35,755 nt of DNA from a virus. The notes beneath the pieces are model-generated. The model did not search any database. It saw only the letters and a list, made by a program, of their open reading frames with translations, and was not told where the DNA came from. Where the stretch lies: positions 1-35,755 of the IMG/VR virus record IMGVR_UViG_3300036791_001396. One strand, 5' to 3'. A program made the position numbers and the translations under genes. Below, piece after piece: positions 8,566 through 35,755 of this stretch. Positions within the stretch are counted from its first letter, which is position 1. Each line of letters opens with the position of its first letter.

Positions 8566-8749
8566 ACATCGATTCGAGATCGAAACAGCAACGGAGGAGG
8601 GTACGGATATTAAATATCCTGTCGTTCGCCTTACTAATAATTTCATCATTTTTCCAACCTTTGACCAGCTTTATGCGCTACGGGCAACGCTCGATCAGTA
8701 CCTAAACGAACTGGCCGTCAACCAGGGGGTAGCCGATGCCATTCGCTAA
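8531..8749 (+). CDS. Small alpha/beta protein preceding Sak4
   Basis: A 72-residue protein starting MSTSVMHHPEPKHRFEIETA, read in a different frame across the end of the previous gene (35-bp overlap). An alternative ATG at 8546 would shorten it by five residues. A strand-rich start (HRFEIETA, then KYPVVRLTNNFIIF) is followed by a helix (FDQLYALRATLDQYLNELA). It overlaps the start of the Sak4-like gene by 14 bp, so it belongs to the same translation chain. Confidence 0.6.
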   Translation: MSTSVMHHPEPKHRFEIETATEEGTDIKYPVVRLTNNFIIFPTFDQLYALRATLDQYLNELAVNQGVADAIR

Positions 8750-9707
8750 AGCCGCCCCTCAACAGGCTTTTTTCAAGGCGGGATTCTACGGAATCACCGC
8801 CTCTGGAAAGACGCTCACCGCACTGCTGTTCGCCGAGCTGCTGGCCAGCTACTCGAAGAAGCGTATTGCGTTCATTGACACCGAACGCGGTACCGATTTC
8901 TACGCTACGGCTATTCCTGATCGCAAAATTCACCCTGAGGCGTTCGATTTCGACGCCATCTATACCAGATCGTTAATGGAGAGCGTAGACGCCCTGGCCA
9001 CGCTGGATACCAATAAGTATGGCGTAGTAGTCATCGATTCGATTACGCATCTCTGGGAAGCAGCTAAGGCTGCTTATACCGGGAAAATGAACTCCAATGG
9101 AGCGTTTCCTATTCAAGCCTGGGGGCCAATCAAGAGACCGTATAAAAAGCTGATGTCGCTATTCATGGATGGCCAGTTCCACGCCATCATTTGTGGCCGT
9201 CAGGGCGTGGTAATGGAGAAGGACGAAGACGGCGACATGGAAATTGTCGGCACGAAAATGAAAGCGGAGGGCGAGACGCCCTACGAACCGAATCTACTAT
9301 TCAAGTTCATTCCTGAGTGGGAGGCGAACGTTCAAAAGATCACCGCTTTCGTTGAAAAGGATCGATCCGGCATACTTCAAGGACGAACGTTTATCATGCC
9401 TAAGCCATCCGACGTCGAACCCATGATTCGATATCTGAGTGGAGGGATGCAGGGCCAGATCGGCTCGCTGGAAGATGCTGCGGAGAAAGACGCCGCGGCG
9501 TTGGAGCTCGAAGAGCAGCAAAAGCAGGAGGGCGTCCGGGTGCTGTTCGAGCAGATCCGTTCCGCGCTGATCAACTCTCAGAACCTGACGCAGCTAAAAT
9601 CCGCCTGGGATCTGACCAAGGGAAAGAAAACCAAATTGGGTGAATCCTATGACGCGCTCGAATCGATTAAGGACGGGCGAAAGGTAGAGTTGACTCATGC
9701 AGCCTAA
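8736..9707 (+). CDS. Sak4-like RecA-fold recombination ATPase
   Basis: A 323-residue P-loop ATPase. Walker A GITASGKT is at 19-26, FIDTERG at about 46-52, and a Walker B-like strand VVVIDSITHLWEA follows near 100. This RecA-core layout, N-terminal in a 300-residue protein with a charged helical C-terminus, is typical of phage Sak4 / AAA_24 recombinases. Those proteins promote single-strand annealing or strand exchange together with a phage SSB. The next gene is exactly such an SSB-like protein, overlapping by 11 bp. The residues from about 240 onward (EDAAEKDAAALELEEQQKQE) are probably a coiled coil. Confidence 0.87.
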   Translation: MPFAKAAPQQAFFKAGFYGITASGKTLTALLFAELLASYSKKRIAFIDTERGTDFYATAIPDRKIHPEAFDFDAIYTRSLMESVDALATLDTNKYGVVVIDSITHLWEAAKAAYTGKMNSNGAFPIQAWGPIKRPYKKLMSLFMDGQFHAIICGRQGVVMEKDEDGDMEIVGTKMKAEGETPYEPNLLFKFIPEWEANVQKITAFVEKDRSGILQGRTFIMPKPSDVEPMIRYLSGGMQGQIGSLEDAAEKDAAALELEEQQKQEGVRVLFEQIRSALINSQNLTQLKSAWDLTKGKKTKLGESYDALESIKDGRKVELTHAA

Positions 9708-10217: not shown

Positions 10218-10245
10218 GAGCAAGCCAAGTCATTCGAGTGCACCC
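10218..10245 (+). repeat. Orphan degenerate A-B repeat pair in the leader of the 10247 gene
   Basis: GAGCAAGCCA (10218-10227, one mismatch to core A), 8 nt, then GAGTGCACCC (10236-10245, two mismatches to core B). The spacing and order are the same as in the main array, which begins 217 bp downstream. The ATG of the next gene is one base further on, so this pair occupies its ribosome-binding region. Confidence 0.7.
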
Positions 10246-10246
10246 C

Positions 10247-10435
10247 ATGAAAACGGAACCATTGATAGATCTGATTCGGAAAGCCATCGGCGAGGCAGAG
10301 GCGGTGTTAACGAAGCCCGCAGCAGTTACGTTCCCGCTGCCCACACCTGCCGATAACGTTCGGCTCCTTCTAATTTTCGAATCGCTTGATGATCGAGAAA
10401 TCTATAGAATGCTGCGCGGGAAAGGAATTGGATGA
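10247..10435 (+). CDS. Small protein between two blocks of the repeat array
   Basis: A 62-residue protein starting MKTEPLIDLIRKAIGEAEAV. ATG at 10247 is preferred to the GTG three codons earlier. It is helical and charged at both ends, with a central PLPTPADNVRLLLIF segment; no domain is recognised. It is enclosed by repeat units: a degenerate A-B pair covers its ribosome-binding region, and the main array starts 27 bp after its stop. It may therefore belong to the same system as the array and the IS110-type gene at 11307. Confidence 0.6.
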   Translation: MKTEPLIDLIRKAIGEAEAVLTKPAAVTFPLPTPADNVRLLLIFESLDDREIYRMLRGKGIG

Positions 10436-10530
10436 CTTTTACAGATACTATGGCAACCGCTGAGCGAGCCATATCCAAGAGAGAACCAGGGAAGGAGAGC
10501 GAGCCATTCCATAAGAGAGCACCAAGATAG
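10432..10530 (+). CDS. Possible short leader peptide reading into the array
   Basis: An ATG overlapping the previous stop (ATGA) opens a 32-codon frame that reads through the first array cores as ERA and REP type tripeptides and stops at TAG 10528-10530. The coupling is the only evidence; the array itself accounts for the amino-acid pattern. It could be a leader peptide controlling ribosome entry to the array, or a chance frame. Confidence 0.25.
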   Translation: MTFTDTMATAERAISKREPGKESEPFHKRAPR

Positions 10531-11298
10531 GTGAGCGAGCCAAGTCGTCGGAGAGCACCAGAGTATTTGAGCGAGCCAAGTGACTTGAGAGCGCCAAAAT
10601 ATTTGAGCGAGCCAGTGATCGGGAGAGAACCACTGTAAGTGAGCGAGCCAATTGCGGGCGAGAGAACCATGCCAGGCGAGCGAGCCAAGTCGCAGGAGAG
10701 AACCATGAGCTGCGAGCGAGCCATACCCAGGAGAGCACCACCCGAAGTGAGCGAGCCAGAAATCGGGAGAGAACCAGCGGCTATGAGCGAGCCAATTGAA
10801 GGCGAGAGCACCAAAGATCGAGAGCGAGCCATTCCATAAGAGAGCACCATAAGTTACGAGCGAGCCATTCCCCTGGAGAGCACCAGACCAGTTGAGCGAG
10901 CCATGTGAGGTGAGAGCACCACTCGCCATGAGCGAGCCATCTATAGAGAGAGCACCACGACACGCGAGCGAGCCATAACCATTGAGGGCACCAGAGCCTG
11001 GAAGCGAGCCAAGCGCAAGAGAGCACCACGACCAGTGAGCGAGCCAAGTGATCGGAGAGCACCAAGATATTGGAGCGAGCCATTCGTGCCGAGAGAACCA
11101 CACAATGGGAGCGAGCCAATATATGCGAGAGGACCAGAATAGGCGAGCGAGCCAAAAATCCAGAAAGAACCAGGGAAAGTGAGCGAGTCAAATCACAAGA
11201 GAGCACCACCACCGTTGAGCGAGCCATGTAGTACGAGAGCACCACGGTACAGGAGCGAGCCATGTCTGATGAGCGAGCCAAATAACGAGAGAGAGCAA
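10462..11298 (+). repeat. 46-unit alternating 10-bp core / 8-nt spacer array (18-bp pitch)
   Basis: Forty-six 10-bp cores run from 10462 to 11280, plus a degenerate last unit from 11289. Two types alternate strictly. Type A is GAGCGAGCCA (24 copies, 22 perfect). Type B is GAGAGCACCA (12 copies), GAGAGAACCA (6) and four single-base variants (22 in all). Only the last two cores break the rule (A then A). Spacers are 8 nt and nearly all different; only TTCCATAA occurs twice (10507 and 10832). B-to-A spacing is 18 bp in all 22 cases, but A-to-B is 17, 18 or 19. The base after core A is A or T in 22 of 24 cases. The cores are not palindromic and cannot pair with each other on one strand. Function unknown: candidates are protein-binding iterons, an RNA processed or bound by the adjacent IS110-type protein, or reiterated ribosome-binding-like leaders. 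Confidence 0.95.
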
Positions 11299-11306
11299 AC
11301 CAATCA

Positions 11307-12101
11307 ATGAATCTAGAATTAGAAGTTGTACAGAAACTGGGACGGGATCTCAGTAAAGCTGCTGTGACCCTGTCCCTCGACGAAGTACGGTTCCTGGTGG
11401 ACGCGTACTACATCATGCAAAAGGACCGCATCCGGTCTTCAAACCAGGTGCGGGCGCTCGGCGAGAACCAGGAGCCGCACGAAGTCTTGCGCTGGCTGGC
11501 CGAGCAAAGCACCACCCTCGAAAACCAGATCAAACGGGCACTTGATAAGTGGACCGATGGCCAGGAGATGGGAAAATGGTGTAAGGGCATCACCGGCCTC
11601 GGCCCCGTCATTACCGCCGGATTGCTGGCGCATATCGACATCACCAAGGCACCGACGGTGGGGCACATCTGGCGGTTCGGAGGACTGGACCCGACGTCGA
11701 AGTGGAAGAAGGGTGAGAAGCGCCCCTGGAACGCTTCCTTGAAGGTCATCCTATGGAAGCTCGGCCAGAGTTTCGTCAAGGTGTCGAACAACGAAAACGA
11801 CGTGTACGGCAAGGTGTACGCTGCGCGCAAAGCCTACGAAATCGAGAAGAATGCCCGGCTGGAGTACAAAGCGCAGGCCGAAGCCATTCTGGCATCGAAA
11901 AAGATCGGGAAGGAGACCACCGCTTACGAGCACTACAGTCTCGGTATGCTCCCGCCCGCACACATTCAACAGCGTGCCGAGCGCTATGCGGTTAAGCTGT
12001 TCTTGTCTCACTTCCACGAGAAGGCGTATTGGCTGGAGTACGGCATTGCACCGCCTCTGCCCTATCCCATCGCCATGCTAAGCCACGCCCATAAGAAATG
12101 A
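11307..12101 (+). CDS. Phage protein with IS110-type transposase C-terminal (Transposase_20-like) domain
   Basis: A 264-residue protein. Residues 90-155 match the C-terminal domain of IS110/IS116 transposases: a helix-hairpin-helix GITGLGPVITAGLLAHI (94-110), then FGGLDPTSKWKKG (124-136), then a helix around LKVILWKLGQSFVK. Full IS110 enzymes (roughly 300-450 residues) carry an N-terminal DEDD/RuvC-like domain; here the first 90 residues are helical and show no acidic catalytic motifs. In IS110 enzymes this domain holds the catalytic serine; S131 is a candidate, unproven. No inverted repeats or target duplication mark an insertion sequence, so it looks like a domesticated phage gene. Its Shine-Dalgarno lies in the last degenerate repeat unit, and the next gene is a VRR-NUC nuclease (ATGA overlap). 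Confidence 0.75.
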   Translation: MNLELEVVQKLGRDLSKAAVTLSLDEVRFLVDAYYIMQKDRIRSSNQVRALGENQEPHEVLRWLAEQSTTLENQIKRALDKWTDGQEMGKWCKGITGLGPVITAGLLAHIDITKAPTVGHIWRFGGLDPTSKWKKGEKRPWNASLKVILWKLGQSFVKVSNNENDVYGKVYAARKAYEIEKNARLEYKAQAEAILASKKIGKETTAYEHYSLGMLPPAHIQQRAERYAVKLFLSHFHEKAYWLEYGIAPPLPYPIAMLSHAHKK

Positions 12102-12430
12102 CCAGCGAAGACGAACTAGAAGTCGCCCTAGCGCGATTCATGAAAGCCAGAGGCTGGCGTAGATACCGGAACCAGATTGGTGTCTACCAGATCGAATGGA
12201 GAACGCAAAGGATCGGAACCCCAGGCTATCCTGATTGGACGTTTCGAAGGTCAACCTCGAAACATGGGACGATCGAAATCTGCCACGTCGAGACTAAGGC
12301 GTCAGGCAAGAAGCCATCATCGGTACAACTGGAGCAGATTGCGCTCTTAAACCACCTGGGCGAACCCGCGATCTGGATAGATAACATGGAGAAATTTGAA
12401 CTATGGTACTTGAACTTATTCTCGCGTTAG
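12098..12430 (+). CDS. VRR-NUC family nuclease
   Basis: A 110-residue protein starting MTSEDELEVALARFMKARGW. It carries the PD-(D/E)XK signature of VRR-NUC phage nucleases: a helix with a Glu at the start, GTPGYPDWTF, then HVETKASGKKPSSVQLEQI, giving PD, ExK and the downstream Gln. Family members cut branched or structured DNA and include Holliday-junction and flap nucleases. It is coupled by ATGA to the IS110-type gene, so the pair may act together on recombination intermediates. Confidence 0.85.
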   Translation: MTSEDELEVALARFMKARGWRRYRNQIGVYQIEWRTQRIGTPGYPDWTFRRSTSKHGTIEICHVETKASGKKPSSVQLEQIALLNHLGEPAIWIDNMEKFELWYLNLFSR

Positions 12431-22616: not shown

Positions 22617-23556
22617 TGGCAAATAATCCAGGGCTCAGGCAATACGGACTAAACCAAACACGCTCGCGTTCGGCATTGTCGCGTGCGCGGCCATTACTCT
22701 GTGAACCATAGCCGCCCTTAGCCTTCCATGCAATGCATTCCCAGGAATCGGGCATAGCGTGCTCGCCCTCATAGCCGCACAGAGCGATTCTCAACTCCGG
22801 GTTATCGCCATGGGCGATAGCCCAATGTCTTACCTCAGCCGCTACATCGCCGCAATCGGTCACATATAGGTCCATATTCCGATCCGCGTTCGAGCCATAT
22901 GGCGGATCGAGAAAAACACCTGTCGTGCCATTTTTGAATGTGACCGAGGGACCGCATATCCTGGACCAATCGCCGCAGCACACCCGAACCAAGCGCAATC
23001 GTTCGGCTAACTGCCAAAGATACTGCTGTATTGACGATTCAGACTGCCGATACACACCCCGGCCAGCATTCCCGAGGTGTGGCAGTTTCCGATGCACACC
23101 CTTGCCAGCATTCCCGAGGTGTGGCAGTTGCCGGGATGGCTTCCCGGCGCACCATCCGCTACCAATCCACACAGATAAGCCCCAGACCCACCAGCCTGCT
23201 ATCTTTGGATCATAGAAATCGGGGTCCGTCTTCATTCGTTCGGACCACCATTCAATCTGGTTTACCAGCCAAAGATGCCTCGCGCCGAGATCCGCCTCAT
23301 TTACGGGCGAATCGGCGTAATAAGCTACTTCATCTGGATCTGCCTGCAGCGCACGCCAGAAATTGGCTACAAAGCAGTCCTTATCGTTGATTGTTTCTAT
23401 TCCTATCTCAGCATGTGGTCGGCTGAGTAGCATTGCGCCCGATCCAAAGAACGGCTCGACATAATTAGCAACATTGCCGAACCGATCCCATACGTGCTCC
23501 GCCACGCGTGATTTGCCGCCAAACCAAGGAAACGGTGCTTTTAGTTCAGTAACCAC
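22606..23556 (-). CDS. Dam/D12-class N6-adenine DNA methyltransferase
   Basis: A 316-residue enzyme starting VTELKAPFPWFGGKSR. The SAM motif FPWFGGKSR and NYVEPFFGSGAMLLSRP are at the N-terminus; the catalytic GVFLDPPYG lies in the second half. I choose GTG at 23556, which has AGGA about 7 nt upstream and overlaps the tail terminator by 11 bp; ATG at 23598 is possible. A 14-residue duplication (LPHLGNAGKGVHRK / LPHLGNAGRGVYRQ) lies in the target-recognition region. It would methylate adenines in phage DNA, probably against host restriction. Its place inside the head-tail operon is unusual. Confidence 0.85.
   Translation of the reverse strand: MVTELKAPFPWFGGKSRVAEHVWDRFGNVANYVEPFFGSGAMLLSRPHAEIGIETINDKDCFVANFWRALQADPDEVAYYADSPVNEADLGARHLWLVNQIEWWSERMKTDPDFYDPKIAGWWVWGLSVWIGSGWCAGKPSRQLPHLGNAGKGVHRKLPHLGNAGRGVYRQSESSIQQYLWQLAERLRLVRVCCGDWSRICGPSVTFKNGTTGVFLDPPYGSNADRNMDLYVTDCGDVAAEVRHWAIAHGDNPELRIALCGYEGEHAMPDSWECIAWKAKGGYGSQSNGRARDNAERERVWFSPYCLSPGLFANVS
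23062..23129. repeat. 42-bp duplication inside the DNA methylase
   Basis: Twenty-six identical bases occur at 23062-23087 and 23104-23129, 42 bp apart (14 codons). They encode the duplicated PHLGNAG unit in the methylase. A tandem duplication of this kind could change target recognition or vary in number by slippage. Confidence 0.8.
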
Positions 23557-33561: not shown

Positions 33562-33726
33562 ATGAGCAACCAGACAACATTCAGCGCGTTCAACGACGAA
33601 CTCGAATACGGTTATTGCGTGGCCGAGGTTTACTTCGACGAGCGCGAGCGCGAGCGCGAGCGCGAGCGCGAGTTGATGAACGTTGACGAACTTATGAACG
33701 TTGACATGGAGGAAAGTTTCGACTAG
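33562..33726 (+). CDS. Small acidic protein with (ER) repeat
   Basis: A 54-residue protein starting MSNQTTFSAFNDELEYGYCV. The ATG follows AGGAGAGAGAAAC. Residues 27-37 are a run of alternating Glu and Arg encoded by a 6-bp microsatellite (GAGCGC), followed by a duplicated MNVDELMNVD. Both repeats can gain or lose units by slippage in multiples of six bases without breaking the frame. A charged single alpha-helix is likely. Function unknown. Confidence 0.7.
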   Translation: MSNQTTFSAFNDELEYGYCVAEVYFDERERERERERELMNVDELMNVDMEESFD

Positions 33727-35320: not shown

Positions 35321-35755
35321 TTACGGCTTAGCTGGCGGCTGTGCCCCCGGCATCGGAACCCAAACCCACAGCCAGCCGTTCAATTCGGCGAAATACGTCA
35401 GCGCCCAGAACCCCGTCGAGCTCGCCTCGGCAGGCGGAAGGTTGATCGGGTGCGTTGGCGTGCCAGTCACGCCACCGGGAGGCGTGCCTGGAGGCGTAGG
35501 CCATACCGTTGGCGGGGGATCAGGCGGCAGGACGATGGGATGCGCCGGGTGACCCGGCGACGGCCAGATACCTGGCAGTTCAGCCGGAGGCAGCACGATC
35601 GGATGCTCAGGACCACCCCCAGGGGCGATGGGATGGGCTGGATACCCTGGCGATGGCCAAATACCGGGGGGCGGTCCGCCCGGTGCGATGGGGTGAGCCG
35701 GATAACCGGGACTCGGCCAAATTCCCGGAGGCGGTCCGCCCGGTGCGATGGGGTG
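35321..35755 (-). CDS. Proline-rich repeat protein, C-terminal part (crosses the contig join)
   Basis: This is the C-terminal part of the gene that starts at 211. Position 35755 corresponds to 127, the first base of codon 29, so the frame is kept through the join. Further, less regular repeats follow (HPIVLPPAELPGIWPSPGHP, then HPIVLPPDPPPTVWPTPPG). The protein ends with a non-repetitive segment of about 30 residues (FWALTYFAELNGWLWVWVPM) that looks like a small strand-rich domain. The extended proline-rich part would be stiff, and the C-terminal module may bind a partner. The role is unknown; lysis, virion decoration and host-surface binding are all open. Confidence 0.85.
   Translation of the reverse strand, partial: HPIAPGGPPPGIWPSPGYPAHPIAPGGPPPGIWPSPGYPAHPIAPGGGPEHPIVLPPAELPGIWPSPGHPAHPIVLPPDPPPTVWPTPPGTPPGGVTGTPTHPINLPPAEASSTGFWALTYFAELNGWLWVWVPMPGAQPPAKP

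What the first reader, a model, noticed from the sequence alone, without database searches (positions are those of the whole stretch)
10462..11298. A 46-unit alternating two-type 10-bp core array with unique 8-nt spacers
Directly seen: 24 A cores (GAGCGAGCCA) and 22 B cores (GAGAGCACCA, GAGAGAACCA and single-base variants) alternate strictly at an 18-bp pitch over 819 bp, ending A-A. Cores are nearly invariant while spacers are almost all different (one 8-mer occurs twice), so the array did not arise by recent copying of whole units; selection or conversion maintains the cores. Repeats and spacers are far shorter than in CRISPR, and there is no dyad. I know of no described element of this form. 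Possible roles: sites for a filament- or wrap-forming protein, a multi-guide RNA, or a partition/origin iteron set.
Basis: seen in the sequence. Interest (0 to 1): 0.95.

Follow-up and report, generated by a model that had tools for sequence, protein, structure and literature searches.

The report
TIGR guide-RNA array with TasA gene
This stretch of a phage genome is a long array of paired guide-RNA units next to the gene of the protein that would carry the guides, a member of the TIGR-Tas family of RNA-guided DNA-binding systems described in 2025, so the kind is known although its natural targets are not.

Summary
In detail: 24 A cores and 22 B cores, alternating, at 10462-11280 (+). Pitch is 18 bp in 40 of 45 steps, 17 in three and 19 in two. 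The claim that nothing like it has been described is wrong. The gene starting 26 bp after the last core (11307-12101, 264 aa) matches NCBIfam NF052498, 'TIGR-Tas system RNA-guided endonuclease' (212 bits, cut-off 100), and the solved TasH and TasR proteins by sequence and predicted fold. It has no nuclease domain, so it is a TasA. The array fits the published TIGR dual-repeat array: A is the edge repeat, B the loop repeat, 8-nt spacers, 36-nt units, 22 predicted tigRNAs. About 74 of 80 relatives fetched by protein alone carry a 35-38-bp periodic array beside tas; 72 other viral stretches hold the identical A-8N-B-8N-A pattern. Repeat positions that pair in TIGR RNAs covary, and spacer pairs joined by the loop repeat are inherited together more often than those joined by the edge repeat. 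No targets were found; candidates are at chance level. Verdict: a well-formed new member of a known kind. What it targets and does for the phage remains open, as for all TIGR-TasA systems.

The parts
10462..11280 (+). TIGR dual-repeat array: 24 edge repeats (A, GAGCGAGCCA) and 22 loop repeats (B, GAGAGCACCA or GAGAGAACCA) separated by spacers of mostly 8 nt; 22 complete edge-A-loop-B-edge units, so 22 predicted 36-nt tigRNAs
   Evidence: same architecture as in PMC12045711
11253..11280 (+). terminal edge-spacer-edge (A-A): last segment lacks a loop repeat
11289..11302 (+). decayed loop-like core GAGAGAGCAAACCA after the last edge repeat
11307..12101 (+). tasA: 264-aa solo Nop-domain Tas protein without a nuclease domain
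   Evidence: NCBIfam NF052498 E 9.3e-63, 212 bits vs cut-off 100; TasH and TasR in PDB by sequence and by fold
10218..10245 (+). isolated decayed TIGR unit (GAGCAAGCCA-AGTCATTC-GAGTGCACCC) about 216 bp before the array
   Evidence: only such pair outside the array; 0.45 expected per shuffled window, so chance is not excluded
10247..10435 (+). 62-aa ORF between the decayed unit and the array, no family match; probably in the same operon
12098..12430 (+). 110-aa ORF overlapping the end of tasA by 4 bp; weak match to PHROG 93 (endonuclease), G.PD...E.K...Q pattern like a VRR-type nuclease; not conserved beside tas in relatives
8736..9707 (+). AAA_24 / Sak4-like recombination ATPase upstream in the same direction (context)
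   Evidence: relative L015 has the same family upstream of its tas gene

Best explanation
It is a TIGR-TasA system of a tailed phage. The array is transcribed on the + strand, probably together with tasA, and cut within each edge repeat into 36-nt tigRNAs (half edge - spacer A - loop - spacer B - half edge). A TasA dimer binds one tigRNA, the edge repeat on one protomer and the loop repeat on the other. Spacer A then pairs with one strand and spacer B with the other strand of a double-stranded target whose sequence is spacer A followed by the reverse complement of spacer B. Because this TasA has no nuclease domain, it most likely binds and sharply bends its target, blocking or altering transcription, replication or recombination there, rather than cutting it. 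Shown here: array anatomy, membership of the Tas family by sequence and fold, the paired architecture and its inheritance in sister arrays, covariation in the repeats. Inferred from characterised members: transcription, processing, two-strand targeting. Inferred only: the biological role, probably acting against competing mobile elements or on host DNA, since no target was found in its own genome.
For: Curated family NF052498 TIGR_Tas_endo, 212 bits vs cut-off 100, E 9.3e-63. Sequence matches to TasH (3.9e-9) and TasR (5.2e-9), weakly to IS621; profile of three orthologues 1.1e-10 and 3.8e-13. AlphaFold model pLDDT 86.9; the best 11 PDB matches are all TasH or TasR, then IS621. Array as published: two alternating repeats, short spacers, edge repeat first and last, beside a Nop gene. 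About 74 of 80 relatives found by protein alone have a 35-38-bp periodic array; a stricter parser accepts 71 of 80; 72 other viral stretches have the exact pattern. Box C/D-like pairing: 1-9 is G-C in 184 of 186 repeat consensuses and 3-8 covaries G-C/A-U/U-A/G-U in 173 of 186; covariation above all 500 shuffles and above slid controls. The two repeats of an array share their last base in 97 of 98 arrays. Spacers joined by the loop repeat stay together in 19 of 24 cases vs 6 of 19 across the edge (p 0.002); second family 19/24 vs 9/24 (p 0.008).
Against: No RNA data were available. No terminator or sigma-70-type promoter was found near the array, whereas published arrays end in a terminator. 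Predicted targets are absent from the phage's own DNA and from 0.65 Mb of relatives beyond chance. In a third family the loop/edge difference is not significant (20/27 vs 13/19). NCBI's family name says endonuclease, but no nuclease domain is seen here.
Confidence: 0.93

Rival explanations
1. TIGR-TasA acting with a nuclease in trans: the ORF overlapping tasA by 4 bp (12098-12430, VRR-like endonuclease) is recruited by TasA, so that the system cuts its targets after all.
For: 4-bp overlap suggests translational coupling; weak match to PHROG 93 endonuclease, E 8.6e-6; G.PD...E.K...Q pattern.
Against: No homologue beside tas in the relatives by tblastn; the motif occurs in 2 of 81 loci, once far from tas; no Pfam match; small endonucleases are common in phage early operons (general knowledge).
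Confidence: 0.06
2. DNA-level role: iterons or a partition/origin site bound by a filament- or wrap-forming protein, with the array never acting as RNA.
For: Regular 18-bp pitch; the published family sometimes has a ParB-like partner; the locus lies in a replication/recombination region.
Against: Iterons are not interrupted by hypervariable spacers inherited as pairs; repeat positions covary as RNA base pairs; the adjacent protein belongs to an RNA-guided family; no ParB-like gene was identified next to it.
Confidence: 0.03
3. Protein-coding tandem repeat: the long minus-strand ORF through the array (10402-11103, 233 aa) is a gene and the cores are conserved codons.
For: Open minus-strand frames span parts of the array and of a relative's array.
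Against: Five of 45 steps are 17 or 19 bp and shift the frame while the cores stay intact; spacers are unconstrained; an 18-bp pitch with stop-free repeats produces such ORFs automatically.
Confidence: 0.01

Closest known systems
TIGR-TasA systems with dual-repeat arrays (Faure et al. 2025, PMC12045711; e.g. Flavonifractor plautii FpTIGR)
   Same: Solo Nop-domain protein beside an array of two alternating 8-12-nt repeats with short spacers; 36-nt unit; family frequent in phages
   Different: 8-nt spacers (18 nt in total in FpTIGR, 16 here); 22 complete units against the usual 5-15; array upstream of tasA with no terminator found; repeat sequences of its own
TIGR-TasH of Salicola phage CGphi29 (PDB 21kl, 9vzx, 9w02-9w04)
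   Same: Closest solved structure by fold and by single-sequence search; 16-nt total spacer; phage; 36-bp periodic array after the gene
   Different: TasH has an N-terminal HNH nuclease that this protein lacks
TIGR-TasR (PDB 9mty)
   Same: Nop domain, repeats ending in CCA, pairing inside repeats, dual spacers
   Different: TasR has an N-terminal RuvC nuclease and 9-nt spacers
IS110/IS621 bridge-RNA recombinases
   Same: Distant relation of the Nop-like RNA-binding domain
   Different: No DEDD domain, no bridge RNA; NCBIfam IS110 model scores 21 vs cut-off 140
CRISPR-Cas
   Same: Arrays of repeats and variable spacers giving guide RNAs
   Different: Repeat and spacer size, two repeat types, no cas genes recognised next to the array

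Membership tests
TIGR-Tas | Adjacent Tas protein with Nop domain | tested here: met
   NF052498 above its curated cut-off; TasH/TasR by sequence and predicted fold
TIGR-Tas | Two distinct alternating repeats of 8-12 nt with spacers of about 9 nt, 36-nt unit | tested here: met
   10-nt repeats, 8-nt spacers, 40 of 45 steps 18 bp
TIGR-Tas | Array begins and ends with the edge repeat | tested here: met
   First and last intact cores are A; A is assigned as edge because spacer pairs joined by the B-type core are inherited together in sister arrays
TIGR-Tas | Box C/D-like motifs that pair and are shared by edge and loop repeats | tested here: met
   1-9 and 3-8 pairs, covariation; shared last base in 97 of 98 arrays
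TIGR-Tas | Terminator after the array (published as typical, not as universal) | tested here: not met
   None found near the array end; here the array precedes tasA. Relative L009 shows a hairpin plus T-run after its downstream array
TIGR-Tas | Processing into 36-nt tigRNAs bound by Tas | not testable with these tools
   needs RNA sequencing
TIGR-Tas | Two-strand DNA targeting by the spacer pair | tested here: inconclusive
   Searched for targets; only chance-level matches
TasA subtype | No N-terminal HNH or RuvC nuclease domain | tested here: met
   264 aa, all-helical model, alignment starts after the HNH region of TasH; Pfam shows no nuclease
TasA with ParB-like partner | ParB-like gene in the operon | tested here: inconclusive
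   Neighbouring ORFs have no ParB match in Pfam, PHROGs or NCBIfam; remote homology not excluded
IS110 transposase | IS110 model above cut-off / DEDD domain | tested here: not met
   21 bits vs cut-off 140; Pfam Transposase_20 16 vs 21.3

The most novel reading that the evidence does not exclude
TIGR arrays of this TasA clade evolve by duplication, loss and shuffling of whole paired-spacer units inside the array, without addition at one end and without an acquisition protein, and here the guides are used with a nuclease supplied in trans by the overlapping gene.
Probability: 0.05. Interest if true: 0.65.

Novelty: new member of a known kind. Interest (0 to 1): 0.33.

Why it matters
The origin, upkeep and targets of TIGR spacers are open questions stated by the discoverers. 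This locus and its relatives provide many natural arrays, including sister arrays that share some units and differ in others. These show that the edge-A-loop-B unit, not the single spacer, tends to be inherited together, and that turnover is internal. Such pairs of close relatives make array evolution directly testable. The work also shows that PHROG 4285, labelled 'transposase', holds this TasA, so such genes are probably misnamed in phage annotation.

Tried and rejected
Targets in the phage's own genome: the spacer pairs as A + 0-2 nt + reverse complement of B gave 1 hit with one mismatch and 2 with two mismatches, against null means of 0.1 and 1.2, with the wrong-register control giving 0 and 4; not convincing. 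Targets among 0.65 Mb of relatives: 6 exact hits against 3-7 in shuffles. A unit conserved in the sister family (CATGAGCT/TCGTCGTG) scanned through IMG/VR: 34 stretches, mostly start-codon contexts and unrelated genes. Codon-like periodicity in spacer variants: none (5 of 28 within-spacer spacings are multiples of 3). Spacers shared between this array and 72 stretches with the same repeats: 5 hits, two distinct spacers, about 1 expected. Relatedness among the array's own spacers: weak for A (p 0.02 for pairs within 2 mismatches), none for B. A first structure model from 3 sequences was poor and was replaced by one from 52. Rfam and PADLOC gave nothing. The GTDB genome scan gave one weak, probably spurious hit. 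A first version of the pair-inheritance count used a faulty pattern (end) and was redone.

Full report
What was checked. The array is real. Twenty-four A cores and twenty-two B cores alternate from 10462 to 11280 on the + strand and end A-A. The pitch is 18 bp in 40 of 45 steps, 17 in three and 19 in two, so 'strictly' is a slight overstatement. GAGCGAGCCA with up to one mismatch occurs 30 times in the window against 3.2 expected, and never more than 9 in shuffles. Outside the array one decayed unit is found at 10218-10245; 0.45 such pairs are expected per shuffled window, so it may be chance.

What it is. It matches the curated NCBIfam model NF052498 'TIGR-Tas system RNA-guided endonuclease' with 212 bits (cut-off 100), and fails the IS110 transposase model (21 vs 140). 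By sequence it matches the solved TasH and TasR proteins (E about 4e-9 and 5e-9) and, weakly, IS621. A profile of this protein and two orthologues strengthens this. A model built from 52 relatives has mean pLDDT 86.9; its first 11 PDB matches are all TasH or TasR chains and the next are IS621. The protein has 264 residues, is all helical and has no HNH or RuvC part, so it is of the TasA type. NCBI's family name 'endonuclease' should not be taken literally here.

[quoted passage not shown] The window fits: 10-nt repeats, 8-nt spacers, 36-nt unit, edge repeat first and last. It gives 22 complete units. The paper's usual size is 5-15 units; among the relatives parsed here 26 of 98 arrays have 46 or more cores, so this size is not exceptional.

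Independent support from relatives. Relatives were fetched by the protein only. In about 74 of 80, DNA with a 35-38-bp period lies beside the gene; my stricter parser accepts 71 of those 80 plus the window. Arrays lie downstream only in 53 loci, upstream only in 5 (as here) and on both sides in 14. A scan for the exact two 10-mers with 8-nt spacers finds 72 stretches in other viral contigs. The minus-strand ORFs across it are a by-product of an 18-bp pitch and are broken by the 17- and 19-bp steps.

Two findings bear on mechanism. First, the repeats behave as RNA: positions 1 and 9 are G-C in 184 of 186 repeat consensuses, and positions 3 and 8 swap G-C, A-U, U-A and G-U together in 173 of 186. 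On 47 distinct repeats the covariation exceeds all 500 shuffles and all slid registers. The two repeats of an array share their last base (A or G) in 97 of 98 arrays, as the paper explains by binding to a symmetric dimer. Second, in sister families with partly shared arrays, spacers joined by the loop repeat stay together in 19 of 24 cases while spacers joined by the edge repeat do so in 6 of 19 (p 0.002). A second family gives 19/24 vs 9/24 (p 0.008); a third shows no difference. Array members are related, so the p values are indicative. The listing shows whole units duplicated, lost and moved within the array, with both ends rather stable.

How it most likely works. By analogy with the characterised members: transcription on the + strand, cutting within edge repeats, one 36-nt guide per TasA dimer, spacer A and spacer B pairing with opposite strands of one site. 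The target form spacer A + reverse complement of spacer B follows from the paper's cleavage geometry (8-nt 3' overhangs; my derivation). Without a nuclease the likely result is binding and bending of DNA. Which DNA is not known. Own-genome sites and sites in relatives are at chance level, and a scan for one conserved unit gave only scattered hits.

Surroundings. The array and tasA lie among + strand genes with a Sak4-like ATPase upstream and a small VRR-like nuclease overlapping the end of tasA by 4 bp. The latter is not found beside tas in relatives, so it is an unlikely but testable partner. Structural genes (terminase, portal, capsid, tape measure) run on the minus strand, so this is a tailed phage.

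Verdict. A clear new member of a known kind. The interest lies in the open questions of the family, for which these arrays are good material, not in the form of the element.

Noticed in passing
window 11307-12101: PHROG 4285, labelled 'transposase, integration and excision', matches this TasA at E 3.9e-50; the label is probably wrong for such proteins.
   Followed up: partly
L012 2920-3645 and 3671-3906: Microcystis phage Mvi-JY20 has a tas-like gene annotated 'hypothetical' followed by 36-bp periodic DNA, apparently an unannotated TIGR system.
   Followed up: partly
L014 2953-3660: Mycobacterium phage Ohno789 gp72 and relatives are weakly Tas-like (E about 0.007), no dual-repeat array detected nearby.
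   Followed up: no
window 10218-10245: Isolated decayed edge-spacer-loop unit before a 62-aa ORF and the array, possibly a remnant of a longer array.
   Followed up: partly
window 12098-12430: Small VRR-like endonuclease ORF overlapping tasA by 4 bp; not conserved beside tas elsewhere.
   Followed up: partly
window 33639-33672, 23045-23133, 35625-35755: Other tandem repeats: CGAGCG x 5.7, a 42-bp unit x 2.1, and a 60-bp unit x 2.2 at the contig end.
   Followed up: no
L018-L025, L084: Sister TIGR arrays sharing some units: two adjacent units (TGGTCCCA/AAAATCCA, CATGAGCT/TCGTCGTG) are conserved in most of them while neighbours turn over.
   Followed up: partly
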